DNA of 64,000 nt from contig CP003316.1 in the NCBI GenBank assembly GCA_000247545.1, positions 2,265,233-2,329,232 of the forward strand. Reading direction: 5' to 3'. Origin of the DNA: Pyrobaculum oguniense TE7 (GTDB taxonomy: Archaea > Thermoproteota > Thermoprotei > Thermoproteales > Thermoproteaceae). The notes under the pieces were generated by a model. That model was not told where the DNA came from. It saw only the letters and a list, made by a program, of their open reading frames with translations, and ran no database searches. The position numbers and the translations under genes are program-made. Positions 35,742 to 54,689 of the stretch are shown piece after piece (positions within the stretch are counted from its first letter, which is position 1; each line of letters opens with the position of its first letter).

Positions 35742-37136
35742 TTACTCCAACAATCTTTCAACGAGATCTAAGGCCTCTTTATAGTCGTAGCTTCTAAATA
35801 GTTCAAGCTTGCTTGCCTCCATCGATCCCTCAGCGTGCATCATAGTTGTTAAATACCAGCCACCACCGCCCACCACAAGTTCTCTTAACAACTCGATTAT
35901 CTTTATTCTGGTCTCCCCGTCTACCGCGGCACGCATATACTTAGAGATGTATTTCCTTGTAGCCTCGTTCTCTAAGTCCTCGTACGTGGGGAAGGTAGCT
36001 ATTATACCGCCAGCGACGTCAACCGTTGCCTTCAGCACATCTGCAAACTTAGCATTTGAATACAGTTTGGCAATATTTGTATACACAGGGTTGGGTATAG
36101 CTACCCCCTCCTGGACAATTGGATACATGGCCGCCGCCAATGCGCCCATCCGCTGGATCTCCTTATATATTACAATCTCCAGGATATCATCTCGAATATG
36201 TTTAGCATCCAATACGCCGTTAGCCTCAGCCATTTTATACGCAGCGCCTAGATATAGATTCGCAAGAGCCGCCCTATAAGACACAGCCGTGAACCTATGA
36301 TAAGTGGCAAAAGTAATTGCAAGCAAGCCAGCATAGTCGTATTCCCCAAACATGAACACCCTGTCCCACGGCACAAAAACATTATCGAAAATAGTCAACG
36401 TCTCGGGCTCTACGCCCTCTTTCCTTCCAATAAAAGTCCTGCCAACTTTACCAGTCTCTCTAACAATCAACTTAAGCCCAGGAGCGTCGATAGGTATTGC
36501 AAATGCCACAGCATAGTTTTTGTCATGCTGTGTCATAGCCCTTGTGGGCAACACTATTATCTCATCCACCGCCACCGCATGGGTGGTGTGAGCTTTCGCC
36601 CCGCTTACAACAATACCGTCGCTCCTCACCTCTACAACTCTCACATAGAGGTCCGGGTCAGGCTGTTGATGGGGCCTTAGTTTTCTATGCCCCTTCACAT
36701 CTGTCTGTGCCACGGCTATAGTCAAATCTTCAGAAACAACACGGCGATAGTAATTCCACACACGCGAATAATAATCAGTACCGGCCCTCTTGTCAATAAT
36801 CTTGCTGACAATCAACAATGCAAATAAGGCATCGCTTCCAATAGCTTGGGAAATATTGAAAAGACCATATCCATATAAAGTATTGTCATAAATCAATTGG
36901 TGTCTCTCTAGTAGATCAGTAGAATTCCGAGGTATTTTATAATATTTGCTTATCTCTTGCTTAAATTCCTCATTAAAATAAGTTCTCTTAGGATATTCAA
37001 AAAGTCGTGCAGTATGATAAACCGCGTATCTTAAATCATCATCTTCAAGTGGCGACGATAATTTCTTCCCCCTGAAATATATCTCAGCTTTTCTATTCGA
37101 TATATCCTTTAGAAAAATATCTTTAGTTCTAACCAT
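35742..37136 (-). CDS. HpaB / 4-hydroxybutyryl-CoA dehydratase family protein lacking iron-sulfur cysteines
   Basis: This 464-residue protein has the acyl-CoA-dehydrogenase-like flavoprotein fold of 4-hydroxyphenylacetate 3-hydroxylase and 4-hydroxybutyryl-CoA dehydratase. It resembles the latter in blocks such as GAKAHTTHAVAVDEIIVLPT and FDNVFVPWDRVFMFGE. The dehydratase needs three cysteines and a histidine to bind its [4Fe-4S] cluster. Here the first cysteine site reads DNTLYGYGLFN, the histidine is present (YHRF, H280) and the last cysteine position is Tyr/Ser. No cysteine occurs anywhere in the chain. So it is probably a flavin enzyme without a cluster. It has its own box A at about 37158-37166 and sits last in the catabolic cluster. 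Confidence 0.75.
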   Translation of the reverse strand: MVRTKDIFLKDISNRKAEIYFRGKKLSSPLEDDDLRYAVYHTARLFEYPKRTYFNEEFKQEISKYYKIPRNSTDLLERHQLIYDNTLYGYGLFNISQAIGSDALFALLIVSKIIDKRAGTDYYSRVWNYYRRVVSEDLTIAVAQTDVKGHRKLRPHQQPDPDLYVRVVEVRSDGIVVSGAKAHTTHAVAVDEIIVLPTRAMTQHDKNYAVAFAIPIDAPGLKLIVRETGKVGRTFIGRKEGVEPETLTIFDNVFVPWDRVFMFGEYDYAGLLAITFATYHRFTAVSYRAALANLYLGAAYKMAEANGVLDAKHIRDDILEIVIYKEIQRMGALAAAMYPIVQEGVAIPNPVYTNIAKLYSNAKFADVLKATVDVAGGIIATFPTYEDLENEATRKYISKYMRAAVDGETRIKIIELLRELVVGGGGWYLTTMMHAEGSMEASKLELFRSYDYKEALDLVERLLE

Positions 37137-37172
37137 TAAACATTGTTAAATAAATAGTTTTTAAACTTTTTC

Positions 37173-38243
37173 CTACGTCTTACGTCGAACTTTAATTGAC
37201 GGAATATATTCCCTATATCTTCGCTTCCTGTAGAGCCCCCACAATCCCTCGGGAAGTAGAAAGATCATACTAAGTGCCACGGCATAAAAAACAACTATTG
37301 AATACCCACCTAGAAATATCCTAGTTAATTCTCTTACACCGATTACGAAATAAGATCCCACTACAGCTCCATACACGGCGCCCTTTCCGCCAACAACAGC
37401 TGATAATAAAATAAGTGTTAAAAACTCAGGAGACAAATAAAGCACACCTGTAAAAGACATGTAATAGTGTGCCAAAAACCAGCCTGCCAAACTTATCATT
37501 CCACTTGTTATAGAATATATAATAATCTTTATATAATTTGTATTAATACCATACATGTTTGCAATATCTTCGTCTTCATTTAAAACGCCCATCATAAGCC
37601 CGTATTTAGAGCGTAAGACCTTGTCAACAAAAAATACGTATGCTAACACAAAAACTGCGCTCAAATAGAAATAAGCAAGTTCTGCCTCAATGGGGTTTAT
37701 GAGGGGCAGTAAAGGAGGGACACCGGGTATGCCTGTCTCTGCACCGAAAATATCGGATCGCCAGTATGCTATCTCATATAAAACAAAAGGCAAGACAAAT
37801 GTAATAAGCGTATAATATATCCCTCTAGATATAACTACTATAGGGCTTAATAAAAATCCTATAAATATTCCCATTAAGAAAGCAATAAAAAATGTTTCTA
37901 GCGGGCCTAATCCGTACCATTTTGAAGTAAGAGCCGCCACATACCCGCCTAAAGCAACGAAGAAGATTGGACCAAAATCTAGCCTGCCCGTGCCAATTAC
38001 TCTAAGACTGTAGGCCACTGAAATCATTGCAACCACATTTGCAAATACCAACGTAGATATGAGAGAGTACCGACCTACCATCCATAGAAACACAGGCGCC
38101 AACAGCCAGAGAATAGTTGCAATAATTGGATTTCTCCAATACCTAGGCTCAACTGTCCACTCAAAGCGACGCGAAATACCCCTAAACTGGATTTCAAATA
38201 TTAGACGGCCACGTCTCTCTTTTCTTAATATCTTTACTACCAT
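37173..38243 (-). CDS. livM: Branched-chain-type ABC transporter permease LivM
   Basis: This 356-residue inner-membrane permease of the HAAT/Liv family has about nine or ten hydrophobic helices after a 50-residue polar N-terminus. The characteristic cytoplasmic loop motif of LivM is present (SKYGLMMGVLNEDEDIANMYGINTNYIK). It overlaps livH by 7 bp. Its substrate is whatever LivK binds. The neighbouring CoA-transferases and beta-oxidation genes suggest a carboxylic acid rather than an amino acid, which is inference. Confidence 0.9.
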   Translation of the reverse strand: MVVKILRKERRGRLIFEIQFRGISRRFEWTVEPRYWRNPIIATILWLLAPVFLWMVGRYSLISTLVFANVVAMISVAYSLRVIGTGRLDFGPIFFVALGGYVAALTSKWYGLGPLETFFIAFLMGIFIGFLLSPIVVISRGIYYTLITFVLPFVLYEIAYWRSDIFGAETGIPGVPPLLPLINPIEAELAYFYLSAVFVLAYVFFVDKVLRSKYGLMMGVLNEDEDIANMYGINTNYIKIIIYSITSGMISLAGWFLAHYYMSFTGVLYLSPEFLTLILLSAVVGGKGAVYGAVVGSYFVIGVRELTRIFLGGYSIVVFYAVALSMIFLLPEGLWGLYRKRRYREYIPSIKVRRKT

Positions 38244-39106
38244 ATGCTTTCCGCTCTTGCTAACCCCCTAGGTCTAATTAACAATATTACAATAATTGCG
38301 ATCAGAGAGGCTAAGTTCATTGCCCGCGGATCAATTAAAAATCCAACTGCTGAATGGATAAAACCAATCACATAAGCAGCGATCAACGTCCCCTTTAAGT
38401 TGCCTAGCCCTCCTAGTACTGCAACTTGCAAAGCCGTTATAAATAGTGGAAATCCCATAAATGGATCTAGTCTAGTCAGTGGCGAATAGAAAATAACTAA
38501 AAAAGCCGGCGCTACTACAGCAAACCCAAGAGACATTGCATAGATTAGATTCACATTAACTCCAAATAATTTCGAAGTATCTAAATCTTGACTTATAGCT
38601 CTTATAATCAACCCAGTTTTTGTAAATTTTAAAATAAATATATATAGAACAAAAATAACAAGAGACAAAAAGGAGAGAAATATATACTGAGACGTTATAG
38701 AAATTGCTCCGAGTTTTATAGTCTCAGCAAAAATATATGTAGGAAGATATACGCCTGTCTCAATTGGGTAAATTATATTAATCACTTCCTCTCCTATCAG
38801 GAAAATTAATACCAGAGTGATTAACAGGTAATCCTCAGCATCGAGATATCTTCTAATAACAGGAAAGAGCGCCATGGAGATTAGTCCCGTTGCCGCTACA
38901 GCCATCGGTATAGATAACCAAAGATCAAAACCCAACATTTTCCAGAATGTCCACGTCAAATAAACTGATGTTAAGAAAGACAGCCCGTATCCCATATGGA
39001 AAACTCGTAATACGCCAGCTATTATTGAAAAACCTAAAGAAAAACCTAAATATATACTTCCAAAAATAAATCCCCAAATTACTACATAAAAAAATAAATC
39101 TAACAT
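38237..39106 (-). CDS. livH: Branched-chain-type ABC transporter permease LivH
   Basis: This 289-residue permease has about eight hydrophobic helices. It shows FSIIAGVLRVFHMGYG near the N-terminus, the EAA-like loop RAISQDLDTSKLFGVNVN, and GGLGNLKGTLIAAYVIGF near the C-terminus, all typical of LivH. It starts 4 bp after the livK stop and overlaps livM at its 3' end. Confidence 0.92.
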   Translation of the reverse strand: MLDLFFYVVIWGFIFGSIYLGFSLGFSIIAGVLRVFHMGYGLSFLTSVYLTWTFWKMLGFDLWLSIPMAVAATGLISMALFPVIRRYLDAEDYLLITLVLIFLIGEEVINIIYPIETGVYLPTYIFAETIKLGAISITSQYIFLSFLSLVIFVLYIFILKFTKTGLIIRAISQDLDTSKLFGVNVNLIYAMSLGFAVVAPAFLVIFYSPLTRLDPFMGFPLFITALQVAVLGGLGNLKGTLIAAYVIGFIHSAVGFLIDPRAMNLASLIAIIVILLIRPRGLARAESIW

Positions 39107-39110
39107 GTTT

Positions 39111-40607
39111 TTACTTACAAGTTTCTCTCAATACTTTAGGACTTTTATAATCTTGAGGTCTGAGGACCGAGAAGTCAACTTCTGCCGGGGTATAAATCTT
39201 ATACCCCTCGTAATCCGGTCTGGAGATGAATACTATTTTACCGCCGCATTGGAATTGCGCTACGAAACCTGGCACGGCAATATATGAGTGGAATCTATAG
39301 TCCTTTGATCCCAAGTAGGCGCTATCAGGAGGATACAGCGTATGTTCGCTGAATTTTACTTCTTCTAGTGTCTTAATAATATTTTCAATATCATCGGGAT
39401 TACCAACTTTTTCGATTACGATTTTTAATAAATAAGCAGTAGAATAATACATGTGCACACTAGAGTCAACTCTTAAGCCTAAGGCGTGTGCCTTAGGTAT
39501 CAACGAACGCGCTTTGATATAGGGATAGTCAGGAACATCGTAATTTAGCGTAATTACGCCTAATGCGGCACCCCCTGTTATATTCCAGAAAACAGCCCAC
39601 TGGTTAGGTCCTCCAAATAAAGCTAACGGTATATCTCTGGCAGAGGAGGTTGCCCATTGTTTTGTCAATGTCGTCGTGTCAGTATACCAACTTGACAATA
39701 CAAAAATAAACTCAGCACCCCTCCTTGCCGCCTCTTCAAGATAAGGCACAAAATTCTTTTCACCTACAGCAATTTTTACTTCATAAACGACGTCAAGGCC
39801 AAACTCCTCCTTCACCCACTCTCTCATAGGCTTAAATTTATATGAACCAAACTTTGTATCAACCGTACAACCCTCTCTTGAGCACAGCGTCCAAGCAGCA
39901 TCTTCGAGAAATAGCGCAACCTTCTTAGCCCCAATTACATTCTTTGCGATATCAAAATAAGGCTTAGTAACTACATAGTTTAAGTCAGGATCTGGGAAGA
40001 ATGGCCTAAAATAGAACTTGTACTTATCATAATCATTTATCACTTTCAGAGTAGTAGCCATGGCACCTTGTCCAGGAACAATTACAACGTGTTTGTAACT
40101 AGGGTAGAGTGTTGCACCTGCCTCCATTACGGCTAGCGCTATTTCAGATACGCCATCAATGAATACATATTTACAACCTTTTTCTGTGACAAGTCTTCTA
40201 TAAGCTGCCACGGCTAAATCTGCCTTACCCTGATGGTCCTCCTCTAGTAGAACTACTTGCCTCCCCAATATACCTCCCCTTTCATTTATCTCCTTAATGC
40301 CAAGCTTAAAAGCTTCGGCCATTGCTTTTAGCACACTAACTCTGGGATTGTAGATTATACACGCTACAATAGGCTGAGACGTCGGTGGCGGCGTCGTCAC
40401 GGTAGGAGAAGGCACCGTCTCTGGGGGAGGCGTCGGCGACGGAGTTATCGCTGTAGGGCTTGTAGGACTGGGGGTTGTAGTTTGAGGAGTGGTTGGAGTA
40501 GTTGTTGGCAAAGGTTGTGCCGGCTGTGATAGGTATACAACAGCGCCGATTACCAAAAGTACTAGAATAACTCCAATAATTAATCCTAGGTTTTTACCCT
40601 TTGACAT
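39111..40607 (-). CDS. livK: Liv-type ABC transporter substrate-binding protein
   Basis: This 498-residue extracellular receptor begins with a basic N-terminus and a hydrophobic signal or anchor (about residues 7-28, LGLIIGVILVLLVIGAVVYL). Some 55 residues of Thr/Pro/Ser linker follow, as in archaeal glycosylated, membrane-tethered binding proteins. The type I periplasmic-binding fold comes next (IVACIIYNPRVSVLKAMAEAF, NERGGILGRQVVLLEEDHQG). The ATG at 40607 is about 26 bp from the CTTTTTAATG box, and a 16-bp palindrome lies just upstream of that box. The ligand is unknown. Confidence 0.9.
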   Translation of the reverse strand: MSKGKNLGLIIGVILVLLVIGAVVYLSQPAQPLPTTTPTTPQTTTPSPTSPTAITPSPTPPPETVPSPTVTTPPPTSQPIVACIIYNPRVSVLKAMAEAFKLGIKEINERGGILGRQVVLLEEDHQGKADLAVAAYRRLVTEKGCKYVFIDGVSEIALAVMEAGATLYPSYKHVVIVPGQGAMATTLKVINDYDKYKFYFRPFFPDPDLNYVVTKPYFDIAKNVIGAKKVALFLEDAAWTLCSREGCTVDTKFGSYKFKPMREWVKEEFGLDVVYEVKIAVGEKNFVPYLEEAARRGAEFIFVLSSWYTDTTTLTKQWATSSARDIPLALFGGPNQWAVFWNITGGAALGVITLNYDVPDYPYIKARSLIPKAHALGLRVDSSVHMYYSTAYLLKIVIEKVGNPDDIENIIKTLEEVKFSEHTLYPPDSAYLGSKDYRFHSYIAVPGFVAQFQCGGKIVFISRPDYEGYKIYTPAEVDFSVLRPQDYKSPKVLRETCK

Positions 40608-40647
40608 ATGATATTATTATAATTCACATTAAAAAGTTTTCCCCTCT

Positions 40648-40663
40648 TTACAAATATTTGTAA
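40648..40663. promoter_or_regulatory. 16-bp palindrome upstream of the livKHM promoter
   Basis: TTACAAATATTTGTAA is a perfect inverted repeat. It lies about 11 bp upstream of the box A (40629-40637) that serves livK, where a regulator could block or recruit TBP/TFB. An inverted repeat sits at the same distance from the promoter at the far end of the cluster (54729-54745). Confidence 0.5.
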
Positions 40664-40694
40664 TTATAATATTGTAAACTATATAGATATATAG

Positions 40695-41915
40695 TCATGT
40701 TTTTGTCCTTGTAGCTGAGAACTTGAATGGCGAAGCGGGAAGTACAACATCTCTTTCGCCGATCCTAACTACCTGTAAACTTTTACGGACATACCAATGG
40801 CGTTCTTCTAACACTCTTTTAAGAGGATAAAGTTCTACTACTACGGGCGCGCCGACATGTCTCTCTATGAATTTTAATACAGGTATTTTTCTATATAATT
40901 GAATATATCTTATAATTTTTTCAATAAGTTTTTTCGAACTATACTTTGAAGCAGCTTGTCTTAATTTTTCGTCAAGTTCCTTAATCCTTTCTACATCGTC
41001 TGAAATTCTATCAATGGCAAATCTCCAGTCAGGCTCTATTTTCCACAAACCAAGGATTTTTAATAACGCCCTAAAATCTGCATCGGTAGGAGTGGCAATT
41101 GAAACGTATCCATCAGCAGTTTTATAATAACCAAATGGATATATTATATAGTCTAGCAGTCCGTACTTCTCTCTGTGTTTTTCAAAAAAGAAACCAACTA
41201 TATATGGGACAAGATGTACGGCAGATAAAACTTCGTTTACGGCGACATCGATGAATTGCCCTTCTCCGCTAATTTCTCTCCAGTACAATGCGACTAGTGC
41301 CGATATGGCGGCTTGGACGCCCGCCATGATGGTCGCCACCCATATTCCTGCTCTTAGCGGGTATTGATATTTTTCACCTTGAAGATAGGGGTTTCCGATG
41401 AGTGTTGGGTATCCGTTATATGCCTGTGCTGTCAAGTCTGAATAGGGTATATTACTATATTTTTCAGCAAGCTCACCAAAACTTCCAAATGGTGATATAG
41501 CAACATAGATAATGTCATGATTAATATTCTGGATTTGTCTATAGCCAACACCTAAGTGGTCTAATTCACCTGGTTTATAACCGTCAATAATAATATCAGA
41601 TTGTTTTACATAGTCTAAAATTTTTTCTTTCTCATTATTAAAGTCTATCTCTACAATATTTTTACACCTATTTTCAATAAAGTAGGGAATGCCGACTTTC
41701 TCATCAATTAACACGCCATAGGGAGTCACGTATCGTGAAGGATCTCCTCCCAATGGTTCTATTTTTATTACATCGGCGCCTAGCTCGCATAGAATTGCAG
41801 CCGCAATTTGTGCGGCAAAATTCGTGTAGCTTATTTCTACTACTTTTACTCCCTCAAGCGCATAAGGCTTATTATTAGGCTCAAATAATGTTTCAACTTT
41901 TTGGCGGCTAGACAT
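40695..41915 (-). CDS. Class III CoA-transferase (CaiB/BaiF family), subunit 1
   Basis: This 406-residue enzyme moves CoA between carboxylic acids. Family blocks are LEGVKVVEISYTNFAAQIAAAILCELGADVIKIEPLGGDPSR at the N-terminus, IDGYKPGELDHLGVGY, and the catalytic Asp in PYSDLTAQAYNG. The C-terminal quarter is divergent. It overlaps a second CoA-transferase by 8 bp, as in two-subunit enzymes such as succinyl-CoA:benzylsuccinate CoA-transferase. I infer that the pair activates the acid taken up by the Liv importer. Confidence 0.88.
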   Translation of the reverse strand: MSSRQKVETLFEPNNKPYALEGVKVVEISYTNFAAQIAAAILCELGADVIKIEPLGGDPSRYVTPYGVLIDEKVGIPYFIENRCKNIVEIDFNNEKEKILDYVKQSDIIIDGYKPGELDHLGVGYRQIQNINHDIIYVAISPFGSFGELAEKYSNIPYSDLTAQAYNGYPTLIGNPYLQGEKYQYPLRAGIWVATIMAGVQAAISALVALYWREISGEGQFIDVAVNEVLSAVHLVPYIVGFFFEKHREKYGLLDYIIYPFGYYKTADGYVSIATPTDADFRALLKILGLWKIEPDWRFAIDRISDDVERIKELDEKLRQAASKYSSKKLIEKIIRYIQLYRKIPVLKFIERHVGAPVVVELYPLKRVLEERHWYVRKSLQVVRIGERDVVLPASPFKFSATRTKT

Positions 41916-43239
41916 AGTCTAATTCGTCTTTTTCTCCTTGAAAAACTGGATCTTTTTCAGGTTCCCACGTGGGAGGAGGCATTGCCCCGATGATATTATC
42001 CCAGAAGCCAACCACCCCTTTTTCAATCAGTGTCTTAATTTCTTGATTGCTATACCCTACCTTCTTCAACACAAGGCGGTTGTGATATCCCACAGGTCTC
42101 CCGAGCCACTTTATTCGGGGTTTAATGCTGCTAAATACTGAAGGGATGTTCACCACCGCCACACGCCCATATAATCTGTCATTTACGTACTCTATTGTGC
42201 CTCTTATCCACTTCCATTTGTCAAACGTCACTTCTACATCATTTAAAACTGGTGCCGCCGGGAATCCGTAGGTAGTAGCAAGGCTGATAATATCCTCTAA
42301 GGTCTTGCTACGTATCCACGTACCTACTTTCTCATTTATTGTCTCAATCATCTTTGGTTCAAGACGTTCAAGATGTGGTTTTTTCAGTTCTTCTATACCT
42401 GTTACCTCTGCGAGGGCTTTTGCTTGTTCGTCGTTAAGTACTGCAATAGCTACGTATTTCCCATCATATGTCTTGAAAATGCCTGAAGGCGATGCGGAGG
42501 GGTCTATATTTCCAGTTTTCCCAATTTCTTTACCTGTAATTGAGTAGTAAGTAAGCTCGTAGTGAAATCTTAATAAAGATTCTGTTTGAGATATGTCAAT
42601 GTATTGACCAGTGCCCGTTTTCTTTCTATATATCAACGCCGCCATTATAGCGGCCACGGCAATCAACGCCGGTAAGTAGTCGCCAAAGTAGTCAGGTAAT
42701 TTATAGAACTCATCTATTTCGGGCCAGCCGGTTGTTCTAGCTATTCCGGCTACTCCCTGTGCCGCGACGTCAAAACTTGGGAATCTGCTAAGAGGCCCAA
42801 ATTGTCCGTATCCCGAACAACTAACGTAGATGAGCTTAGGATTTATTTTACTTAGTTGGAAATACCCAATTCCCATCGATTCAGCTAGGCCTGCTCTAAG
42901 ATTTTCAATAAATATATCAGCATCCTTCACAAGTTTGTATATAATTTCCCTACCTTCTTTTTCTCTAGCATCAGTAGCAATGAAATATTTATTTACATTT
43001 AATATAAGAAAATATGGGTTGGCTAGTTTATAAAATCTTCCCCATATAGCGGCTTGTCTAAATCTATCACCTTCTCCAGGGGGCTCTACTTTAATTACCT
43101 CAGCCCCCAAAAGCGCCAGATACCTACCAATAGTGGGTCCAAATACAAAATGCGTCACTTCAACTACTCGCAATCCTTTCAACGGCTCTGTCCCTCCCTT
43201 TTGTCTTATTACGTTTTCTATGTACTTAAAATAATTCAT
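41908..43239 (-). CDS. Class III CoA-transferase (CaiB/BaiF family), subunit 2
   Basis: This 443-residue protein shows LKGLRVVEVTHFVFGPTIGRYLALLGAEVIKVEPPGEGDRFR, IENLRAGLAESMGIGY and the catalytic Asp block PSFDVAAQGVAGIARTTGWP. Both it and its partner keep the Asp nucleophile, so each could be active, or they may form a heteromer. It is wedged between livF and the first subunit, with 4- and 8-bp overlaps. That ties CoA activation to transport in one transcript. Confidence 0.9.
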   Translation of the reverse strand: MNYFKYIENVIRQKGGTEPLKGLRVVEVTHFVFGPTIGRYLALLGAEVIKVEPPGEGDRFRQAAIWGRFYKLANPYFLILNVNKYFIATDAREKEGREIIYKLVKDADIFIENLRAGLAESMGIGYFQLSKINPKLIYVSCSGYGQFGPLSRFPSFDVAAQGVAGIARTTGWPEIDEFYKLPDYFGDYLPALIAVAAIMAALIYRKKTGTGQYIDISQTESLLRFHYELTYYSITGKEIGKTGNIDPSASPSGIFKTYDGKYVAIAVLNDEQAKALAEVTGIEELKKPHLERLEPKMIETINEKVGTWIRSKTLEDIISLATTYGFPAAPVLNDVEVTFDKWKWIRGTIEYVNDRLYGRVAVVNIPSVFSSIKPRIKWLGRPVGYHNRLVLKKVGYSNQEIKTLIEKGVVGFWDNIIGAMPPPTWEPEKDPVFQGEKDELDYV

Positions 43240-44680: not shown

Positions 44681-44684
44681 GAAA

Positions 44685-45425: not shown

Positions 45426-45428
45426 AAG

Positions 45429-46621: not shown

Positions 46622-46658
46622 TAAGTGACTAGAAAAAGGTCTTTTTTTATCTTTTATT

Positions 46659-47705
46659 CTATATCTTTAATACTGCTCTGCCAACTATTTTTCCCTCTTC
46701 AAGTTCTTTGAATATTGTATTAATTTCGGATAGGTCGGCTATCATTGTTATGTGACTTTTCACTTTACCCGCCACGACGAGGTTAAAAAGCTCCTCAAAT
46801 TCGTGAGTAACCCCCACCACGCTTCCAAATACCCTTATGCCCATCCCGACGACTGTTAAGGGATATAGTGGAATGACACCCTCTTTAACGTCTGGTAAGC
46901 CAACAGAAACTAAGGCTCCTAGGGGTCGGAGCATCATAAGTCCTAATTCGTAACCTGCGATTTTTGGAGTAAATACCACAGAGGCATACACGCCGCCGAA
47001 CTTCTCCTTTGCGAATTTCTCTGCGCTCTTAGCGTCAATTGCGTAGTCCGCCCCAATTTTTTCAACAAATTTTACTCTGTCCTCTCCGACATCTACTCCT
47101 AATACGACATATCCAAAAGCCTTAGCAATCTGTACGGCGTAGTGGCCCAAGCCGCCGGCAGCCCCAATTATGGCAATTGGTTTTCCGGGAGGTATCCTCG
47201 CCTCTGTTACTAATTTCCTAATTGCGCCGTACGCTGTGACGCCGGCGCACATAAGCGGGGCTGCCTCTACATCGCCTATTTCTTTGGGGATCTTTGGAGC
47301 TGCCTTCTCGTGTATTATCGCGTATTCGGCATGTGTGCCATTTACGTGGACAGAGGTATTCACGGCATGTGGACACCAATGCGGATACCCACTTAGGCAG
47401 GACTCACATGCGCCGCACCAGCTGTTCATCCACGGCACGCCAACTCTATCGCCTTTTCTCAATCTAGAGACTCCGAGTCCAACCTCTTCAACAACACCAA
47501 TGCCTTCATGGCCTAATATCCTAACGCCGTGTTTCTCCATGATGTACTTGACAGAAGACCAGTCGCCTTTCCATTGATGTATGTCAGTGTGGCAAACACC
47601 TGAGGCGTGTATTCTAACCAAGACCTCGCCAGGTCCAGGCTCAGGCTTTGGCACATCTTCTATTGACAGGGGCTTTCCCCATTCTTTAATAACAGCAGCT
47701 CTCAT
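46659..47705 (-). CDS. Zinc-dependent alcohol dehydrogenase (MDR family)
   Basis: This 348-residue medium-chain dehydrogenase has catalytic zinc ligands in GVCHTDIHQW and GHEGIG. The structural zinc cysteines are in WCGACESCLSGYPHWC, and the Rossmann motif is GAAGGLGHYAVQIAKAFGY. It resembles propanol-preferring tetrameric ADHs. It is placed within the beta-oxidation cluster, 3 bp after the DUF35 gene, so it may oxidise an alcohol precursor of the acid. That is inference. Confidence 0.92.
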   Translation of the reverse strand: MRAAVIKEWGKPLSIEDVPKPEPGPGEVLVRIHASGVCHTDIHQWKGDWSSVKYIMEKHGVRILGHEGIGVVEEVGLGVSRLRKGDRVGVPWMNSWCGACESCLSGYPHWCPHAVNTSVHVNGTHAEYAIIHEKAAPKIPKEIGDVEAAPLMCAGVTAYGAIRKLVTEARIPPGKPIAIIGAAGGLGHYAVQIAKAFGYVVLGVDVGEDRVKFVEKIGADYAIDAKSAEKFAKEKFGGVYASVVFTPKIAGYELGLMMLRPLGALVSVGLPDVKEGVIPLYPLTVVGMGIRVFGSVVGVTHEFEELFNLVVAGKVKSHITMIADLSEINTIFKELEEGKIVGRAVLKI

Positions 47706-47708
47706 ATT

Positions 47709-48164
47709 TTATGTACAACTTAGATCCCTTAAATAGATAATATGTCTATCTTTTATAACGCGAATAGTGAGTTCAACTCTATTGCCAACTTTTACGCATT
47801 TTTCATCAGGTGGATCTACCCAACCCATTACCCTTACGCCATTTTCAAGTGTCGCGATGCCAATTACGTAGGGGTCGACGTCGTCAAAGCCTTGTGGGCG
47901 TGCATATACTTTAGTGAACGCCTCTAGTACTCCGAATTTTGGTAGCTCTACCCACTCCATGTCTGAGCTAAAATCGTCTGAACAATCCGCCTGTGGAGGG
48001 AAGTAAATCCTCCCGCATTTTTTACACCTAGTGGCGAAGATTTTTCCCTCTTTTAATCCTTCCCAGAATTTGTAAGTTTTTTGTATAGGTATTTTATGTT
48101 TATATATTAACGGTACGGAGTCAATAGTTGGCCCTTCTATTTTTGTGTATTTGCGTGTGCTCAT
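47709..48164 (-). CDS. DUF35 OB-fold / zinc-ribbon acyl-CoA-associated protein
   Basis: This 151-residue protein has an N-terminal helix, a rubredoxin-like zinc ribbon (ATRCKKCGRIYFPPQADC) and an OB-fold (FGVLEAFTKVYARPQGFDDVDPYVIGIATL). The fourth zinc ligand, usually Cys, is Asp here (CSDDF). DUF35 proteins act as partners of SCP-x-type thiolases; the gene overlaps that thiolase by 4 bp, so they are surely one enzyme complex. A similar pair ends the benzylsuccinate beta-oxidation operons (BbsA/BbsB). Confidence 0.9.
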   Translation of the reverse strand: MSTRKYTKIEGPTIDSVPLIYKHKIPIQKTYKFWEGLKEGKIFATRCKKCGRIYFPPQADCSDDFSSDMEWVELPKFGVLEAFTKVYARPQGFDDVDPYVIGIATLENGVRVMGWVDPPDEKCVKVGNRVELTIRVIKDRHIIYLRDLSCT

Positions 48165-49324
48165 CGCCTTAAAACCACGACGTATGATACAGGTCCCACG
48201 CCTGCGACGTTATGCGCAAGCGCTATGTATTTCTTGAGCGGGGCCTGTCTTGGTCCCGATCTTTCTTCTCTGAGTTGTTTGGTAAGTTCATATATCATTC
48301 CCAGCCCCGTAGCACCAAGCGGATGTCCTTTGGCTTTTAGACCACCGTCTATATTCACGGCCACTTTGCCGCCTGCGTAGGTTTGTCCTTCTGCAATTAG
48401 CTTAGGCCCTTCGCCCTTTTTAACAAATCCCAAATCCTCGTAGGCGATTATCTCTGCAATTGTAAACGCATCGTGGACGTTGGCAACTTCTACATCTCTG
48501 GGCTCAATTCCGGCTTTTTTATATGCCATCTCTGCGGCTAATCTCGTAGCTTGGAATGTTGTATAATCCTTTCGCCGGGTTAGCAATGGCGTATCGTTTG
48601 CATAACCAATTCCCGCTATCCAGACCGGGGTGTCGATCTTGTATTTTCTCACTGCGTCCTCGGATGCCAGTATGGCCGCAGCTGTGCCATCACTTATAGG
48701 TGAAGAGTCAAGTAGTTTTATGGGCCAGGCTATGGGCCTAGACTTAAGCACCTCCTCTACTGTGACTGTGTGTTGGAAATGAGCTTTGGGATTTAGCGAG
48801 CCGTAGTAGTGATTCTTAACTGCTACAAGCGCCATGTGCTCCTCCGTAGTGCCGAATTTGGCCATATGCGCGGTTGCGTACAGCGCATACCCCGCGGGCA
48901 TTGTAGTTCCGTAGAAGTGGAACTCCCAGAGATAATTCCCCGCCCTTCCGCCTACTGCTAATGAGGTGGGCGTATCGACCTCAGTCATTTTCTCAACGCC
49001 TACTGCTAGGACAACTTCGGCGCTTCCGCTAGCTATTAGATTGTACCCAACAGTCAACGCCACAAGGCCTGTGGCGCACGCCATTTCCACTCTAATAGGC
49101 CCCTTGGGGGTCATTCCTATGTAGTCGTTTACAGGTTGCGCTGGCATTAGCTCATATCCTCTTGTGCCAACATTGCCCACTACGCTTATGTCAACATCTC
49201 TTTGGGTAACACCCGCGTCTTCTAAAGCTTCTTTAACAGCTTCCCACGCAAGTTCTTGCATTGTCACATCGCTACGTACGCCGTAAAGAGATTGACCAAC
49301 CCCGATTACCGCTACTCTTCTCAT
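48161..49324 (-). CDS. Thiolase, SCP-x type (acyl-CoA acyltransferase)
   Basis: This 387-residue thiolase has the nucleophilic cysteine in MACATGLVAL and the histidine in KGHPLGATGLG. It lacks the second cysteine motif of classic thiolases (the C-terminus reads AHNVAGVGPVSYVVVL). That pattern is normal for the DUF35-dependent class. It lies directly after the acyl-CoA dehydrogenase and upstream of its DUF35 partner. It would cleave a 3-oxoacyl-CoA in the last step of the pathway. Confidence 0.92.
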   Translation of the reverse strand: MRRVAVIGVGQSLYGVRSDVTMQELAWEAVKEALEDAGVTQRDVDISVVGNVGTRGYELMPAQPVNDYIGMTPKGPIRVEMACATGLVALTVGYNLIASGSAEVVLAVGVEKMTEVDTPTSLAVGGRAGNYLWEFHFYGTTMPAGYALYATAHMAKFGTTEEHMALVAVKNHYYGSLNPKAHFQHTVTVEEVLKSRPIAWPIKLLDSSPISDGTAAAILASEDAVRKYKIDTPVWIAGIGYANDTPLLTRRKDYTTFQATRLAAEMAYKKAGIEPRDVEVANVHDAFTIAEIIAYEDLGFVKKGEGPKLIAEGQTYAGGKVAVNIDGGLKAKGHPLGATGLGMIYELTKQLREERSGPRQAPLKKYIALAHNVAGVGPVSYVVVLRR

Positions 49325-50539
49325 TTACAACTTGAAATATCCGCGCCTTACCGCATCTACAATAGTCAATAGATTAATCTCTGTGGTTCCCTCGTAGATA
49401 CGTGTCACTCTGTGATCTCTCCACGCTCTCTCTACTTCAAACTCTTCCATATAACCCCCTCCTCCTAAGATTTGAATTGCGTGATCTATAACTTTCGTAG
49501 CCGACTCTGTGACGAAGGTTTTAGTAATTGAAGATATTGCGGCCATGGTTCTTGGTTCTACTAATCCTTTGATGTAGTCGTCCAGTATGAGGTGTGCCCT
49601 ATACACAGCTAGCCTAGACAAGTCGATTAGCTGAATCATCTCTGCAAGTTTTTGTTGAATGAGTTGGTGTTCAATTATGGGCTTTCCAAATTGTATCCTT
49701 TTTTGCGCGTACTCAAATGCCTTGTCAAATGCGTTCAGCATCATTCCTAGTGCTACTGCACCGACGTGAGTACGCCCAATGTTTAGATATTGAAGCGCCC
49801 GGTAGAACCCCATGTTGTACTCCTTCTCGCCGCCGACTATGTTCTCCTTTGGCACTTTAACATTGTCAAGTCTTATCTCGCCTATTGGGGATCCTCTCTG
49901 CCCCATCTTCCCTTTCAGCGGCTTAATCTCGACGCCGGGCCAATCTGTGTGAATTAGAAACAACGTCTGCCCTCTGTATTTCTTTTCCGGCTCAGTCTGC
50001 GCAAGGACAATACCATATTCGGCAGTAGGGGCGTTTGTAATAAAAGTCTTTATGCCTTTTAAAATAAAGTAGTCGCCGTCCTTTTTAGCCACTGTAGAGA
50101 GCTCGGTGATGTCACTCCCGTGTTCTGGTTCGGTCAAGGCCAGGAAGAAAGTTTTCTCTCCTCGGACGACGGGGGGTATGTACTGTTTTTTCTGCTCCTC
50201 TGTCCCGAATAGGTACAAAACACCAAGGCCGAATGCTCCTGATAATATACACTGGCCTAGTGTGGTGTCAGCTCTGATTAGCTCTTCAGTTATAACAGCG
50301 CTCACTATTTCTGTACTAAACCCCGCACCGCCGTACTCTGTCGGAATTGTAGAACCAATTAGGCCTAGTTCACCCGCTTTTTTGTATAGATCCCAGGGAA
50401 AAGCCTCCTCTTTGTCTATTTTATGGGCCAGTTCTTTGGTAAAATACCTCTGCGCAAACTCTCTAGCTGTTTTACGAACTAAATCTACTTCTGATTTATA
50501 TTGCTCTGGAATTAAATAGGTATCTGTAATCTGAGACAT
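49325..50539 (-). CDS. Acyl-CoA dehydrogenase
   Basis: This 404-residue FAD enzyme shows LTEPEHGSDITEL and FITNAPTAEYG for FAD/substrate binding, and the catalytic Glu in RVTRIYEGTTEINL near the C-terminus. The ATG at 50539 lies about 24 bp from a TTTAAAAATC box, so a new transcript starts here. It introduces the double bond in beta-oxidation; EtfBA (29.8-31.4 kb) is the likely electron acceptor. Confidence 0.94.
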   Translation of the reverse strand: MSQITDTYLIPEQYKSEVDLVRKTAREFAQRYFTKELAHKIDKEEAFPWDLYKKAGELGLIGSTIPTEYGGAGFSTEIVSAVITEELIRADTTLGQCILSGAFGLGVLYLFGTEEQKKQYIPPVVRGEKTFFLALTEPEHGSDITELSTVAKKDGDYFILKGIKTFITNAPTAEYGIVLAQTEPEKKYRGQTLFLIHTDWPGVEIKPLKGKMGQRGSPIGEIRLDNVKVPKENIVGGEKEYNMGFYRALQYLNIGRTHVGAVALGMMLNAFDKAFEYAQKRIQFGKPIIEHQLIQQKLAEMIQLIDLSRLAVYRAHLILDDYIKGLVEPRTMAAISSITKTFVTESATKVIDHAIQILGGGGYMEEFEVERAWRDHRVTRIYEGTTEINLLTIVDAVRRGYFKL

Positions 50540-50577
50540 TAATAGTTGTAGTAAATAGATTTTTAAAGATTTCTCCT

Positions 50578-51783
50578 TTACGCCCTATGCAACACTATTG
50601 CGTGACCTTGTCCTCCCCCTACGCATGCTGTGGCTACGCCTATGTTTTTGCCCTTGTAGTTCAGAAGTCTTGCCAATGTGCCTACTAGTCTAGCGCCTGT
50701 TGCGCCAAGCGGATGTCCTATTGCAATAGCTCCTCCGTGGATGTTAACCTTATTTTCATCGAGGTTTAGCTCTCTAATTGCGTTTATAACAACGACTGCA
50801 AACGCCTCATTGATTTCCCACAAGTCTACATCGTCTACTCTTAGTCCTTTTTGTTTAAGCGCCTTTCTAACAGCCGGCACAGGTCCTTCGCCCATTACGG
50901 CGGGGTGTACGGCTGCCCAGCCTACAGATACGATTTCAGCTAAAGGCTTTATCCCTAGTTCGTGGACTTTTCTTTCCGACATTAAAACAACAAGAGTAGC
51001 ACCTGTGTTCATTGGCGACGAATTACCCGCCGTGATTACGCCATTTTCCTTAAAAGCCGGTGGAAGTTTTGCTAAGATCTCCAGACTAGTGTCCGGCCTC
51101 ACGCTGAGATCGCGATCTACAACAATCTTCTGACCCTCTTTGACTACTTCGACAGGCAACAGCTCATCTTTGAAGTAGCCCTCTTCGTATGCTTTAGCCG
51201 CAAGTTTGTGACTTCTATAAGCCCATCTATCCATATCCTCTCTTGAAATCTTTTTAACCTCGGCGAGTTTTTCAGCAGTTAAACCCATTACGTAACCTGT
51301 CTTCATATCGTAGATCCTTAGGTATTCTTCATCTTCTACAAGCTCCCTATGTCTTATGATGTAGGGATTCTGTGGACCCATTGGCACTCTAGACATGTGC
51401 TCATAACCACCTGCGATTACTATGTCGGAGTATCCCATTGCGATTTCCATAAACCCTATCTTGATAGCCTCAAGGCTCGAGGCGCATTGCATATCGACTG
51501 AGAGTGTGGGGATCGTAACGGGGAGTTTCGCGAAGAAAATCGGTATTCGGCCACCCATATTCCAATTATCACCTGCTTGTAATGCGCAACCGGTTATCAC
51601 TCTATCGATATCCTCTGGCTTGATGTTATATTCGCGAAGATCCTCTACGGCTTTTCTTAAAAGCATTGAGTATAGGACGGGGCCTTTTATGTCGTAATAA
51701 ACGTCGAATTTAGGATCGTCTCTCTTTACTCTAGAAAAGGGCACCCTTTTATAATAAACTAGGTATACTCGTTGAAGAGTCAT
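50578..51783 (-). CDS. Acetyl-CoA acetyltransferase (classic thiolase)
   Basis: This 401-residue thiolase has the nucleophile in MQCASSLEAIKIG, the His block HGGAIAIGHPLGATGAR, and the second Cys in CVGGGQGHAIVL, so the catalytic set is complete. It cleaves 3-oxoacyl-CoA to acetyl-CoA. It overlaps the esterase by 4 bp within a four-gene transcript that starts at 54689. Confidence 0.94.
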   Translation of the reverse strand: MTLQRVYLVYYKRVPFSRVKRDDPKFDVYYDIKGPVLYSMLLRKAVEDLREYNIKPEDIDRVITGCALQAGDNWNMGGRIPIFFAKLPVTIPTLSVDMQCASSLEAIKIGFMEIAMGYSDIVIAGGYEHMSRVPMGPQNPYIIRHRELVEDEEYLRIYDMKTGYVMGLTAEKLAEVKKISREDMDRWAYRSHKLAAKAYEEGYFKDELLPVEVVKEGQKIVVDRDLSVRPDTSLEILAKLPPAFKENGVITAGNSSPMNTGATLVVLMSERKVHELGIKPLAEIVSVGWAAVHPAVMGEGPVPAVRKALKQKGLRVDDVDLWEINEAFAVVVINAIRELNLDENKVNIHGGAIAIGHPLGATGARLVGTLARLLNYKGKNIGVATACVGGGQGHAIVLHRA

Positions 51784-52724
51784 GGCTCTTCAAACCGGGT
51801 TCTTATAGATATGGCGATTTGAGATATCGCTTCTTTTCCTTCTTCTAGTATTGGGTAGAAATTCACAAAACCGTGTATCACGCCATTATATCGCACTACT
51901 GTAGATCTTACGCCATTGACTTTAAGGTAGTATCCATATAGCTCGCCTTCGTCTCTCAGCGGGTCATATTCGGCGGTTATAATAAGAGCCGGCGGCAAGC
52001 CGCTCAGCTTTGCAAAAATTGGCGAAGCGTATGGACTGAACGCGTCCTCGAATTTTGATAGGTACTGTCTTCCGAACCAACTCATGAGATCTGATGTAAG
52101 AATAACGTATTCCTCTCCGCTGTACTCCACTCTTGAAATTGTGGGTGAAGCTGAGAGATTAACTGCGGGGTATATGAGGACTTGGTATTTTACGAAATCC
52201 TCCCCATGATCTCTTGCCATAATAGCAGTAACAGTAGCTAGATTGCCGCCCGCGGAGTCTCCCGCTACTGCTATTTTGCCATTGTCTATCCCGAGTTTGT
52301 CATAGTTGTCTGCAACCCACTTTGCAGATTCATAGGCGTCATGAACAGCAGCTGGGAATTTATGCTCAGGCGCTAGCCGGTAGTCAACTGAAACTACAAC
52401 AGCGCCGGAAAGCCTGGAGATTCTTCTACAGACATGATCGTGGGTTTCGATACTCCCAAGTACAAAGCCGCCTCCGTGGTAGAATACAACGGCCGGTAGC
52501 CTCTCCCTATCGCTAGGACGGTATATCCGCGCGCGGATTGTGCCCTCTTTTGTAGGTATAGTTATATCCTCTGTTTTGTAAATAGGTTCATTTGCCATTT
52601 TAACTAATAATTGTGATGACATATTGAACCCTTCTCTGAACTTATTTACATCTATATCAGGCTTAAATCTAAGTACTTTTGAAAGCTGTTCAAGTAGTTG
52701 TTTTACAGCTGGGCTAAGTGGCAT
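51780..52724 (-). CDS. Carboxylesterase of the hormone-sensitive lipase family (PestE-like)
   Basis: This 314-residue esterase has the HSL oxyanion motif HGGGFVLG, the nucleophile in GDSAGGN, Asp in EYDPLRDEG and His in VIHGFVN. It resembles the characterised esterase of Pyrobaculum calidifontis over most of its length (from memory). It overlaps both neighbours (4 and 11 bp). In this cluster it may free the acid from an ester; the natural substrate is unknown. Confidence 0.94.
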   Translation of the reverse strand: MPLSPAVKQLLEQLSKVLRFKPDIDVNKFREGFNMSSQLLVKMANEPIYKTEDITIPTKEGTIRARIYRPSDRERLPAVVFYHGGGFVLGSIETHDHVCRRISRLSGAVVVSVDYRLAPEHKFPAAVHDAYESAKWVADNYDKLGIDNGKIAVAGDSAGGNLATVTAIMARDHGEDFVKYQVLIYPAVNLSASPTISRVEYSGEEYVILTSDLMSWFGRQYLSKFEDAFSPYASPIFAKLSGLPPALIITAEYDPLRDEGELYGYYLKVNGVRSTVVRYNGVIHGFVNFYPILEEGKEAISQIAISIRTRFEEP

Positions 52725-53898
52725 ATTTATAAAATCCTTCTTTACTTTTTCTTCCTAGTTTACCTTCTTTTAACATTTGTATAAGAAGCTCGTCTGGCTT
52801 AGCTAATATAAGCCCGTATTTGTTATAGATATATTCTAGTTCTTTTACTACCTCGTCTATTCCCCATTCGTCGGCGTATTGAAGAATGCCCTTAGGATAT
52901 CCGAGGCCTAATCTCACGCCTGTATCTATGTCCTCCTTTGTAGCAATGCCGTTTCTTAAAAGCCAAGCCGCCATGTTGACGCTGCTTGCAAGAACTCTTA
53001 CTACGTTGACTCTCTCTCCAGCTTCTTTTGGGATGTTGGGCCTGTCTGATGGAGATTTGTATTCGTAGAACCCTTTTCCGCTTTTTACTCCCAACCACCC
53101 TTTCTTATAGTACTCCTCGATGAGGGGGCATTCTTGTCTAAATAAGGGGTCTCTTTCGGCGAGGGCTTTTGCTACCATATAGCCCACGTCGATACCAGTA
53201 AAGTCGCGTAGTTCAAATAGGCCCATTGGCAAGCCTGCCTTGTACTTGACAGCCGAGTCTATTTCGACCGGTGTGTATTCTCCTCTGTAAACTAGATGGC
53301 ATGCAACGTTCTGAATAGCGCCGAGGATGCGATTTACTATGAAGCCTGGCACATCTCTATTTACTATAATCGGCGTTTTGCCAAGAGACTTAACAAATTC
53401 AAAACTCCTCCTTACTGTATCGTCATCTGTCTTGTTTCCCTTTATTATCTCTACCAGCTGCATCAGAACAGGTGGATTGAAGAAGTGGATGCCAACGACT
53501 TTGTTCGGTCTTCTAGTTGCCTCCGCAATTTCGGAAATTGGAAGAGAGGACGTATTAGTAGCAAGAATGGCATCTTCATGCATTAATGAGTCTAATCTTG
53601 CAAAGATGTCTCTTTTAAGTTGTAGATTTTCAGGCACGGCCTCAATACCTATGTCAGAATTTCGTGCAGCCTCCTCGAAATTGAGTGTCGCTCTTATCCT
53701 GCTTAATACTTCTTCTACACTACTTATCCTTCTCTTCTCATAAAGTTTTTCAAGGCTCCATTTAATCTTTTCAATAGCCTTGTTTAAAATCTCTGCGCTG
53801 ATGTCGTAAATGTAGACCTCGTAGCCTGCCAGCGCCGCCACTTCTGCTATGCCATGTCCCATCGTGCCGGCGCCTACAACAAAGACGCGCCTGATCAT
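52714..53898 (-). CDS. 3-hydroxyacyl-CoA dehydrogenase
   Basis: This 394-residue enzyme has the NAD motif GAGTMGHGIAEVAALAGYEV and the catalytic stretch GIHFFNPPVLMQLVEII. Two helical C-terminal domains follow, the second a duplicate (residues about 290-394). It oxidises 3-hydroxyacyl-CoA to 3-oxoacyl-CoA. It overlaps the upstream crotonase by 4 bp, giving the usual hydratase-dehydrogenase pair. Confidence 0.93.
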   Translation of the reverse strand: MIRRVFVVGAGTMGHGIAEVAALAGYEVYIYDISAEILNKAIEKIKWSLEKLYEKRRISSVEEVLSRIRATLNFEEAARNSDIGIEAVPENLQLKRDIFARLDSLMHEDAILATNTSSLPISEIAEATRRPNKVVGIHFFNPPVLMQLVEIIKGNKTDDDTVRRSFEFVKSLGKTPIIVNRDVPGFIVNRILGAIQNVACHLVYRGEYTPVEIDSAVKYKAGLPMGLFELRDFTGIDVGYMVAKALAERDPLFRQECPLIEEYYKKGWLGVKSGKGFYEYKSPSDRPNIPKEAGERVNVVRVLASSVNMAAWLLRNGIATKEDIDTGVRLGLGYPKGILQYADEWGIDEVVKELEYIYNKYGLILAKPDELLIQMLKEGKLGRKSKEGFYKYAT

Positions 53899-54689
53899 CG
53901 TCCTCTAAACACCGGCTTTCTCTTTTCAAGAAACGCTCTTAACCCCTCTTTTCCGTCCTCTGAAACTAACGCTCTTTGGAATAACAACTGCTCATACTCA
54001 AGGCCCTTTGACAGAGGTAGTTCATATACAGCGTTGATTGCCTTCTTTGCAAGGGCAACAGCCAATGGGCTTTTCTGCTTTATCTCCTCTACCACAGACA
54101 TTACACATTTTTCAAGCTCTTCAGGTGCGCACACAGCATTAACTAACCCTAATTTTGCCGCCTCTTCTGCTGTGAGTCTACGACCTGTGTAGATTAACTC
54201 GCGGGCTTTTTTGTCCCCAATTAATCTTGGTAATAATTGAGTACCCCCACCGCCGGGGATAATCCCCAGATTTATCTCTCCCTGGAAGAACACGGCATCT
54301 GTTGAGGCAAAGACCATGTCGCAAAATTGAATAAGTTCCATTCCGCCTCCTACTACATATCCGTGTACCATTGCTATGACCGGTTTTGACATTTCTCTAA
54401 TATACATGCCGATATCTGCAATTCCGACTCCTTTTGGAAGTTTTTCAAAATCAGATAAAGTCATTTCTGATAACATTTTCAAATGAGAAGCATCTGCGCC
54501 GGCGCTAAACGCTTTTCCTGCACCTCTCAAGATCACAACTCTGATATCTTCTCGTGATTGCGCCTCTTGGAGACATCGTAACAAATTTTGTCTTACTTCT
54601 AGGTCCATTGCATTTAACTTATCAGGGCGATTGAGTGTGATCCAGAATACGCCGTCTCTAGCTTCACATAATACCTTACTATCAGACAT
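53895..54689 (-). CDS. Enoyl-CoA hydratase
   Basis: This 264-residue crotonase has both catalytic glutamates at standard places (FQGEINLGIIPGGGGTQ, and ARELIYTG), unlike the paralogue at 45830-46621. The GAGKAFSAGADASHL block forms the oxyanion hole. The ATG at 54689 lies about 24 bp from the CTTATAAG box. It heads the first transcript of the catabolic cluster. Confidence 0.93.
   Translation of the reverse strand: MSDSKVLCEARDGVFWITLNRPDKLNAMDLEVRQNLLRCLQEAQSREDIRVVILRGAGKAFSAGADASHLKMLSEMTLSDFEKLPKGVGIADIGMYIREMSKPVIAMVHGYVVGGGMELIQFCDMVFASTDAVFFQGEINLGIIPGGGGTQLLPRLIGDKKARELIYTGRRLTAEEAAKLGLVNAVCAPEELEKCVMSVVEEIKQKSPLAVALAKKAINAVYELPLSKGLEYEQLLFQRALVSEDGKEGLRAFLEKRKPVFRGR

What the first reader, a model, noticed from the sequence alone, without database searches (positions are those of the whole stretch)
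35742..54689. Large acid-degradation cluster with built-in Liv-type importer
Eighteen same-strand genes combine a five-component importer with two CoA-transferases inserted between its ATPase and permease genes, and a full beta-oxidation set. Paired CoA-transferases, acyl-CoA dehydrogenase, SDR and a DUF35-thiolase pair recall the benzylsuccinate (bbs) operons, yet no benzylsuccinate synthase is present. The substrate is unknown and may be aromatic, alicyclic or branched.
Basis: partly seen in the sequence, partly recalled or inferred. Interest (0 to 1): 0.7.

Follow-up and report, generated by a model that had tools for sequence, protein, structure and literature searches.

The report
Imported acid-breakdown island with uptake-activation cassette
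A heat-loving archaeon carries a borrowed 19-gene block that probably takes up an unidentified organic acid, attaches coenzyme A to it and burns it by beta-oxidation; the uptake and activation genes travel together as one conserved unit in several distantly related archaea.

Summary
The cluster is real: 19 (not 18) minus-strand genes at 35742-54689 of what is, by size, the Pyrobaculum oguniense TE7 genome. Three points go beyond the finding. (1) The block is an AT-rich foreign island (GC3 39% against 68% around it); the same 19 genes in the same order (69-93% identity) lie on a 42%-GC 'Ca. Bathyarchaeota' contig. (2) Importer and CoA-transferase genes form a conserved seven-gene cassette (LivKHMGF-CaiB2-CaiB1), without beta-oxidation neighbours, in Archaeoglobi, Nezhaarchaeota and Ignisphaera genomes, so 'import then activate' is well supported. 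(3) The bbs resemblance is superficial: BbsA/BbsB models score far below cut-off, both CoA-transferases keep the catalytic Asp where a BbsEF chain has Gly, and the genome has no PFL-like glycyl radical enzyme. Several beta-oxidation genes resemble Sulfolobales fatty-acid-cluster genes (about 55-60%). Most likely function: uptake, CoA transfer and beta-oxidation of an organic acid, probably aliphatic. The exact substrate cannot be read from sequence.

The parts
53895..54689 (-). Enoyl-CoA hydratase (ECHb), first gene of the operon
   Evidence: best hits enoyl-CoA hydratases; both crotonase Glu motifs present (GGGMEL, GEINLGIIPG)
54711..54720 (-). TATA-like box (tacttataag) about 22-31 nt before the first ATG, compatible with a leaderless archaeal transcript
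   Evidence: TATA-like tract also before ECHb on the Bathyarchaeota contig; inference
52714..53898 (-). 3-hydroxyacyl-CoA dehydrogenase (HAD)
   Evidence: 55% to the HAD half of a Sulfolobales HAD-ECH fusion
51780..52724 (-). Hormone-sensitive-lipase-type esterase (LipP1 family)
   Evidence: LipP1 351.8 bits, cut-off 350; motifs HGGGF and GDSAG
50578..51783 (-). 3-ketoacyl-CoA thiolase with a complete Cys/His/Cys active site
   Evidence: PRK06445 620 bits, cut-off 511; motifs
49325..50539 (-). Acyl-CoA dehydrogenase (ACAD)
   Evidence: IYEGT catalytic Glu motif; 61-64% to the Vulcanisaeta-type ACAD next to the HpaB-like gene
48161..49324 (-). SCP-type thiolase, partner of DUF35; nucleophilic Cys (ACATG) present, second Cys motif (CxGGG) absent
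   Evidence: PRK12578 637.8 bits, cut-off 485
47709..48164 (-). DUF35/ChsH2-type OB-fold, zinc-ribbon protein
   Evidence: PF01796, PF12172; BbsA model only 45.7 bits, cut-off 250
46659..47705 (-). Zinc alcohol dehydrogenase (MDR)
   Evidence: catalytic and structural zinc cysteines present
45830..46621 (-). Crotonase-family protein (ECHa), probably an enoyl-CoA isomerase (PaaG-like IPDGG motif; lacks the first hydratase Glu)
   Evidence: PaaG best, 210 bits, below cut-off 345; isomerase role inferred
45429..45833 (-). Hot-dog acyl-CoA thioesterase (YbgC/FadM type)
44685..45425 (-). SDR 3-ketoacyl/3-hydroxyacyl reductase-dehydrogenase
   Evidence: PRK06077 423 bits, cut-off 320; 58% to Sulfolobales cluster SDR
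43940..44680 (-). LivG, importer ATPase (cassette)
43236..43943 (-). LivF, importer ATPase (cassette)
41908..43239 (-). CaiB2, class III CoA-transferase, catalytic Asp157 (cassette)
40695..41915 (-). CaiB1, divergent class III CoA-transferase, Asp160 kept (cassette)
40628..40637 (-). TATA-like box (actttttaat) 21-30 nt before LivK, second putative promoter; similar tract at the same place on the Bathyarchaeota contig
   Evidence: inference
39111..40607 (-). LivK, type I substrate-binding protein with N-terminal anchor helix and Pro/Thr-rich linker (cassette)
   Evidence: PF13458 95.7 bits; AlphaFold2 model pLDDT 83.9; fold matches
38237..39106 (-). LivH, importer permease (cassette)
37173..38243 (-). 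LivM, importer permease (cassette)
35742..37136 (-). HpaB/4-hydroxybutyryl-CoA-dehydratase-like flavoprotein without the Fe-S cysteines ('type 2')
   Evidence: PF11794, PF03241; closest solved 6vjr/1u8v; cysteine columns
29756..31422 (+). Electron-transfer flavoprotein EtfB-EtfA, 4.3 kb outside the block and of host-like composition; possible electron acceptor of ACAD
   Evidence: read from the translations; composition; functional link inferred

Best explanation
A horizontally acquired catabolic operon for one class of organic acid, most likely aliphatic (fatty, branched or dicarboxylic). LivK captures the acid outside the cell and LivHMGF imports it with ATP. The CaiB1-CaiB2 pair, probably a heteromer, moves CoA onto it from an endogenous donor such as succinyl-CoA or acetyl-CoA, which replaces the acyl-CoA synthetase absent from the cluster. 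ACAD (electrons to ETF), ECHb, HAD or SDR, and the two thiolases then run beta-oxidation to acetyl-CoA. ECHa and possibly the HpaB-like flavoprotein shift double bonds; the esterase and zinc alcohol dehydrogenase feed in ester-bound or alcohol forms; the thioesterase frees trapped CoA. Shown: gene content, order, motifs, conservation of the cassette, foreign composition. Inferred: the direction of metabolism, the pairing of CaiB1 with CaiB2, the donor and the substrate.
For: 19 tightly packed co-directional genes. Catalytic motifs intact in ACAD, HAD, ECHb, thiolase, esterase and MDR and catalytic Asp in both CoA-transferases. Seven-gene cassette LivKHMGF-CaiB2-CaiB1 found without beta-oxidation genes beside it in Nezhaarchaeota, Archaeoglobi and Ignisphaera genomes (nine of 59 Archaeoglobi genomes carry this CaiB1). 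Pairwise identities of importer and CoA-transferase subunits correlate at r 0.86-0.95. No close LivK in other Pyrobaculum, no type-2 HpaB elsewhere in the family, sharp GC drop and a complete collinear copy in a 42%-GC Bathyarchaeota MAG: lateral gain as one unit. HAD, SDR, thiolase, esterase and HpaB relatives (about 39-60%) lie close together in Sulfolobales, where a cluster of the same enzyme kinds is tied to fatty-acid growth (PMC6449355).
Against: No expression or biochemical data. Known class III CoA-transferases act mostly on small polar acids (oxalate, carnitine, malate, benzylsuccinate), not on simple fatty acids (general knowledge), which sits uneasily with a fatty-acid reading. LivK's nearest folds include amino-acid and aromatic-acid binders at near-equal scores, so its ligand is open. 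Archaeal beta-oxidation genes may also run in the synthetic direction (discussed in PMC6449355).
Confidence: 0.65

Rival explanations
1. The substrate is a polar di- or hydroxy-acid (for instance glutarate-, adipate- or malate-like, or a branched dicarboxylate); the CaiB pair works like SmtAB or SUGCT, and beta-oxidation handles the remaining chain.
For: CaiB2's best solved relative is succinate--hydroxymethylglutarate CoA-transferase (206 bits); the succinate--glutarate and succinyl-CoA:mesaconate models score 178 and 155 bits. An ATP-driven importer suits a scarce polar substrate. Paired class III enzymes of known function use succinyl-CoA and substituted succinates (general knowledge).
Against: All those models are far below cut-off (750, 700). 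Two thiolases, an isomerase-like crotonase and an esterase suggest a longer chain.
Confidence: 0.3
2. An aromatic or alicyclic acid pathway related to bbs, phenylpropanoid or cyclohexanecarboxylate degradation.
For: DUF35-thiolase pair, CoA-transferase pair, SDR; LivK fold close to 4-hydroxybenzoate and p-coumarate binders (Z about 30).
Against: BbsA 45.7 against 250 bits, BbsB 227 against 750, cyclohexanecarboxyl-CoA dehydrogenases 240/160 against 650/575, BadI 170 against 468, 6-hydroxycyclohex-1-ene-1-carbonyl-CoA dehydrogenase 92 against 339; no PFL-like enzyme in the genome; no ring-attacking enzyme recognised in the cluster; amino-acid binders score equally in the fold search.
Confidence: 0.12
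3. The importer is an ordinary amino-acid transporter and the CoA-transferases belong to amino-acid (2-hydroxy acid) fermentation; the beta-oxidation genes are a separate unit placed next to it.
For: Strain grows on yeast extract and tryptone (PMC3558965); Liv-type family; 87-bp gap with a TATA-like box before LivK.
Against: Four other LivK proteins in the genome match PF13458 far better (142-192 bits against 92); the CaiB genes overlap LivF by 4 bp and stay with it across phyla; the whole block moved as one unit.
Confidence: 0.12
4. Membrane-lipid or fatty-acid remodelling module running in the synthetic direction, with the importer for salvage.
For: Archaeal beta-oxidation genes may be bidirectional (PMC6449355); thioesterase, zinc dehydrogenase and SDR reductase present.
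Against: ACAD with a canonical catalytic Glu motif and dedicated import/activation genes fit catabolism better.
Confidence: 0.08

Closest known systems
Sulfolobus acidocaldarius FadR-controlled fatty-acid/lipid cluster (Saci_1103-1126; PMC6449355)
   Same: ACAD, enoyl-CoA hydratase, HAD, thiolases and esterases together; Sulfolobales genomes hold HAD 50-55%, SDR 55-59%, thiolase 58-60%, esterase 39-51% near an HpaB-like gene at 52-56%
   Different: Here one compact operon with an ABC importer and class III CoA-transferases; no acyl-CoA synthetase, no TetR regulator; HAD and ECH are split genes
bbs operon (benzylsuccinate beta-oxidation, e.g. Thauera, Geobacter)
   Same: Paired class III CoA-transferases, ACAD, crotonase, SDR, DUF35-thiolase pair
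   Different: No BbsA/BbsB equivalogs, both CoA-transferases keep the Asp, no glycyl radical synthase in the genome, extra importer, esterase, MDR, HpaB-like gene and second thiolase
HAAT/Liv ABC importers for aromatic acids in Rhodopseudomonas (4-hydroxybenzoate, p-coumarate binding proteins)
   Same: Same importer type and SBP fold
   Different: Archaeal, 14-19% SBP identity, genetically tied to a CoA-transferase pair
4-hydroxybutyryl-CoA dehydratase (AbfD, 1u8v; vinylacetyl-CoA delta-isomerase 6vjr)
   Same: HpaB-family fold and near full-length similarity (208-217 bits), conserved YHR histidine
   Different: Three Fe-S cysteines absent in this clade; the Metallosphaera paralogue Msed_1220, listed as ND in PMC7078158, appears to be of this type (inference)

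Membership tests
bbs (benzylsuccinate degradation) operon | BbsA/BbsB thiolase equivalogs | tested here: not met
   45.7 of 250 bits and 226.7 of 750 bits required
bbs (benzylsuccinate degradation) operon | BbsEF-type CoA-transferase with one subunit lacking the catalytic Asp | tested here: not met
   9fn0_B has Gly at the aligned position; CaiB1 Asp160 and CaiB2 Asp157 are invariant
bbs (benzylsuccinate degradation) operon | Benzylsuccinate synthase (PFL-like glycyl radical enzyme) in the genome | tested here: not met
   no PF02901 match in the whole genome
Class III CoA-transferase (PF02515) | Family profile and catalytic Asp | tested here: met
   210 and 303 bits, cut-off 23; Asp aligned to solved members
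Class III CoA-transferase (PF02515) | Heteromeric assembly of CaiB1 with CaiB2 and CoA-transfer activity | not testable with these tools
   Inferred from constant adjacency and correlated divergence
HAAT/Liv-type ABC importer | SBP, two permeases, two ATPases of the family together | tested here: met
   SBP fold
HAAT/Liv-type ABC importer | Amino-acid specificity | tested here: inconclusive
   amino-acid and aromatic-acid binders tie
4-hydroxybutyryl-CoA dehydratase | [4Fe-4S] ligands Cys99, Cys103, His292, Cys299 (AbfD numbering, general knowledge) | tested here: not met
   only the His is kept; the Cys are absent in the window protein and its closest relatives
Sulfolobales FadR-type fatty-acid cluster | Homologous beta-oxidation set plus esterase in one region | tested here: met
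   for the published cluster
Sulfolobales FadR-type fatty-acid cluster | TetR (FadR) repressor in the cluster | tested here: not met
   No regulator gene among the 19 genes

The most novel reading that the evidence does not exclude
A previously undescribed archaeal 'import-and-charge' cassette: an ABC importer dedicated to an organic acid and genetically tied to a two-subunit CoA-transferase in which both subunits carry a catalytic Asp, perhaps handing imported acid directly to the transferase; mobile between archaeal phyla, and in Pyrobaculum joined to a complete pathway including a flavoprotein (Fe-S-free 4HBD homologue) with a new reaction on CoA esters.
Probability: 0.3. Interest if true: 0.65.

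Novelty: new variant of a known kind. Interest (0 to 1): 0.5.

Why it matters
It links an orphan Liv-type importer to its activating enzyme across distant archaea, giving a concrete handle on what hyperthermophilic archaea take up besides peptides. It shows a whole catabolic pathway moving between archaeal phyla as one block, and it places an unexplained Fe-S-free dehydratase homologue in a defined acyl-CoA context that can be assayed.

Tried and rejected
Beta-oxidation synteny in other Thermoproteaceae: only a distant CaiB pair without an importer. Its neighbours there (an aconitase-family protein; an NAD-binding hydroxyisobutyrate-dehydrogenase-like protein) gave no firm substrate clue. Fumarate-addition idea: 6 of 10 cassette genomes hold PFL-like proteins, but the four examined are PFL2-3/glycerol-dehydratase-type, and P. 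oguniense and ILS200 have none. Empty insertion site: the right-flank TYW1-like gene is conserved in the genus, but the left-flank genes were not beside it in the five relatives read, so no exact empty site; no tRNA in the window and no convincing terminal repeats. LivK fold search could not discriminate ligands. Binning error as the source of the ILS200 copy cannot be fully excluded: the MAG has 3.19% estimated contamination, but its ribosomal protein L5 is only 53% like Pyrobaculum's and the contig's GC fits the MAG. A literature search for a CaiB/ABC-transporter link in Archaeoglobus found nothing, on a limited open-access library.
Full report
What is there. Families were assigned with NCBIfam and Pfam. 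Catalytic motifs are intact in ACAD (IYEGT), HAD, ECHb, the FadA-type thiolase, the esterase and the zinc alcohol dehydrogenase; ECHa lacks the first hydratase Glu but has a PaaG-like IPDGG motif; the DUF35-linked thiolase lacks the second Cys motif.

The importer and the CoA-transferases are one unit. In all three, the genes run LivK-LivH-LivM-LivG-LivF-CaiB2-CaiB1. A scan of 85,000 species genomes found 13 relatives of CaiB1; the ten at 49% or more (Archaeoglobi, Nezhaarchaeota, Ignisphaera and one Bathyarchaeota record) all sit directly behind LivF and CaiB2, while the three at 35-38% (Thermoproteus, Pyrobaculum WP30) have no importer beside them. Nine of 59 Archaeoglobi genomes carry the CaiB1. 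Outside P. oguniense and ILS200 the flanking genes examined are unrelated (an AMP-binding acyl-CoA-ligase-like gene lies upstream in L131), so the cassette stands alone. Pairwise identities among six of its proteins correlate at 0.86-0.95 over eleven loci (closely related pairs of loci inflate this somewhat). In P. oguniense and ILS200 the order is a permutation, LivG-LivF-CaiB2-CaiB1-LivK-LivH-LivM, which is why the CoA-transferases appear 'inserted'.

The block is foreign. Eighteen ORFs inside average GC 0.426 and GC3 0.386; forty outside average 0.556 and 0.677 (p = 4e-9), with sharp edges near 35.6 and 54.8 kb. Within the family no other genome searched has LivK of this kind or a type-2 HpaB. 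The complete 19-gene block, in the same order and at 69-93% protein identity, lies on WUQU01000383.1 of 'Ca. Bathyarchaeota' ILS200, a MAG of 42.24% GC (PMC9241837). The composition of the block matches that genome, not Pyrobaculum, so the direction of transfer is most likely into P. oguniense from a low-GC lineage; ILS200 or a relative is the best candidate, with binning error as a caveat.

Relatives of the enzyme part. The HpaB-like protein is about 52-57% identical to proteins that in Vulcanisaeta-like genomes lie next to an ACAD 61-64% identical to the window's, and in Sulfolobales lie near HAD (50-55%), SDR (55-59%), thiolase (58-60%) and esterase genes (genus names from genome lengths and memory). 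The published S. acidocaldarius cluster of this kind is repressed by FadR, and its derepression speeds growth on hexanoate (PMC6449355). The window's HAD and ECHb correspond to the two halves of the fused Sulfolobales enzyme. The HpaB-like protein is closer to 4-hydroxybutyryl-CoA dehydratases (217 and 208 bits) than to 4-hydroxyphenylacetate hydroxylases (123 bits), but the three cysteine ligands of the [4Fe-4S] cluster are absent in it and its close relatives. A Metallosphaera paralogue, Msed_1220, is listed as ND for this activity (PMC7078158). My suggestion that this flavoprotein isomerises enoyl-CoA double bonds is inference.

Why not bbs. BbsA and BbsB equivalog scores are 45.7 (cut-off 250) and 226.7 (cut-off 750), while the archaeal thiolase model PRK12578 scores 637.8 (cut-off 485). 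One BbsEF chain (9fn0_B) has Gly where CaiB2 has its invariant Asp, and CaiB1 has the Asp too. There is no PFL-like protein in the genome. Alicyclic markers (cyclohexanecarboxyl-CoA dehydrogenase, BadI, 6-hydroxycyclohexenecarbonyl-CoA dehydrogenase) are all far below cut-off.

How it probably works. LivK, anchored by its N-terminal helix, binds the acid; LivHMGF imports it; CaiB1-CaiB2 transfers CoA from a cellular CoA ester; ACAD oxidises the acyl-CoA and passes electrons to ETF (EtfBA lie at 29756-31422, host-like in composition); hydratase, dehydrogenases and thiolases complete the spiral. Esterase and alcohol dehydrogenase widen the intake to esters or alcohols. TATA-like boxes about 22-31 nt before the first gene and before LivK, with similar tracts at those places on the ILS200 contig, suggest one or two leaderless transcripts. 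The substrate stays open: the CoA-transferase family favours polar acids, the enzyme set favours chains long enough for thiolysis, and LivK's fold neighbours include amino-acid and aromatic-acid binders.

Verdict. A real, well-organised and laterally acquired catabolic island with a conserved archaeal import-activation cassette. Its parts are known families; the combination and its distribution are, as far as I could search, undescribed.

Noticed in passing
window 35742-54689: The block is an AT-rich island with sharp edges and a collinear copy in a Bathyarchaeota MAG: lateral transfer of a full pathway between archaeal lineages.
   Followed up: yes
window 35742-37136: Fe-S-free 'type 2' 4-hydroxybutyryl-CoA dehydratase homologue, conserved in Sulfolobales, Vulcanisaeta-like and other archaeal genomes beside acyl-CoA genes; function unknown.
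   Followed up: partly
L034:8515-11886 and L031:8467-10952: Other Thermoproteaceae carry a more distant CaiB1-CaiB2 pair (about 37% and 50%) without importer; in Pyrobaculum it follows a hydroxyisobutyrate-dehydrogenase-like gene. Function unassigned.
   Followed up: partly
L125:16126-17748: On the ILS200 contig a 540-aa acyl-CoA dehydrogenase family gene follows the cluster on the opposite strand; it is not present at that place in the window.
   Followed up: no
window 52714-54689 and L078:17340-19298: ECHb and HAD are split, 4-bp-overlapping genes matching the two halves of the fused crotonase/3-hydroxyacyl-CoA dehydrogenase of Sulfolobales, in reversed gene order.
   Followed up: partly
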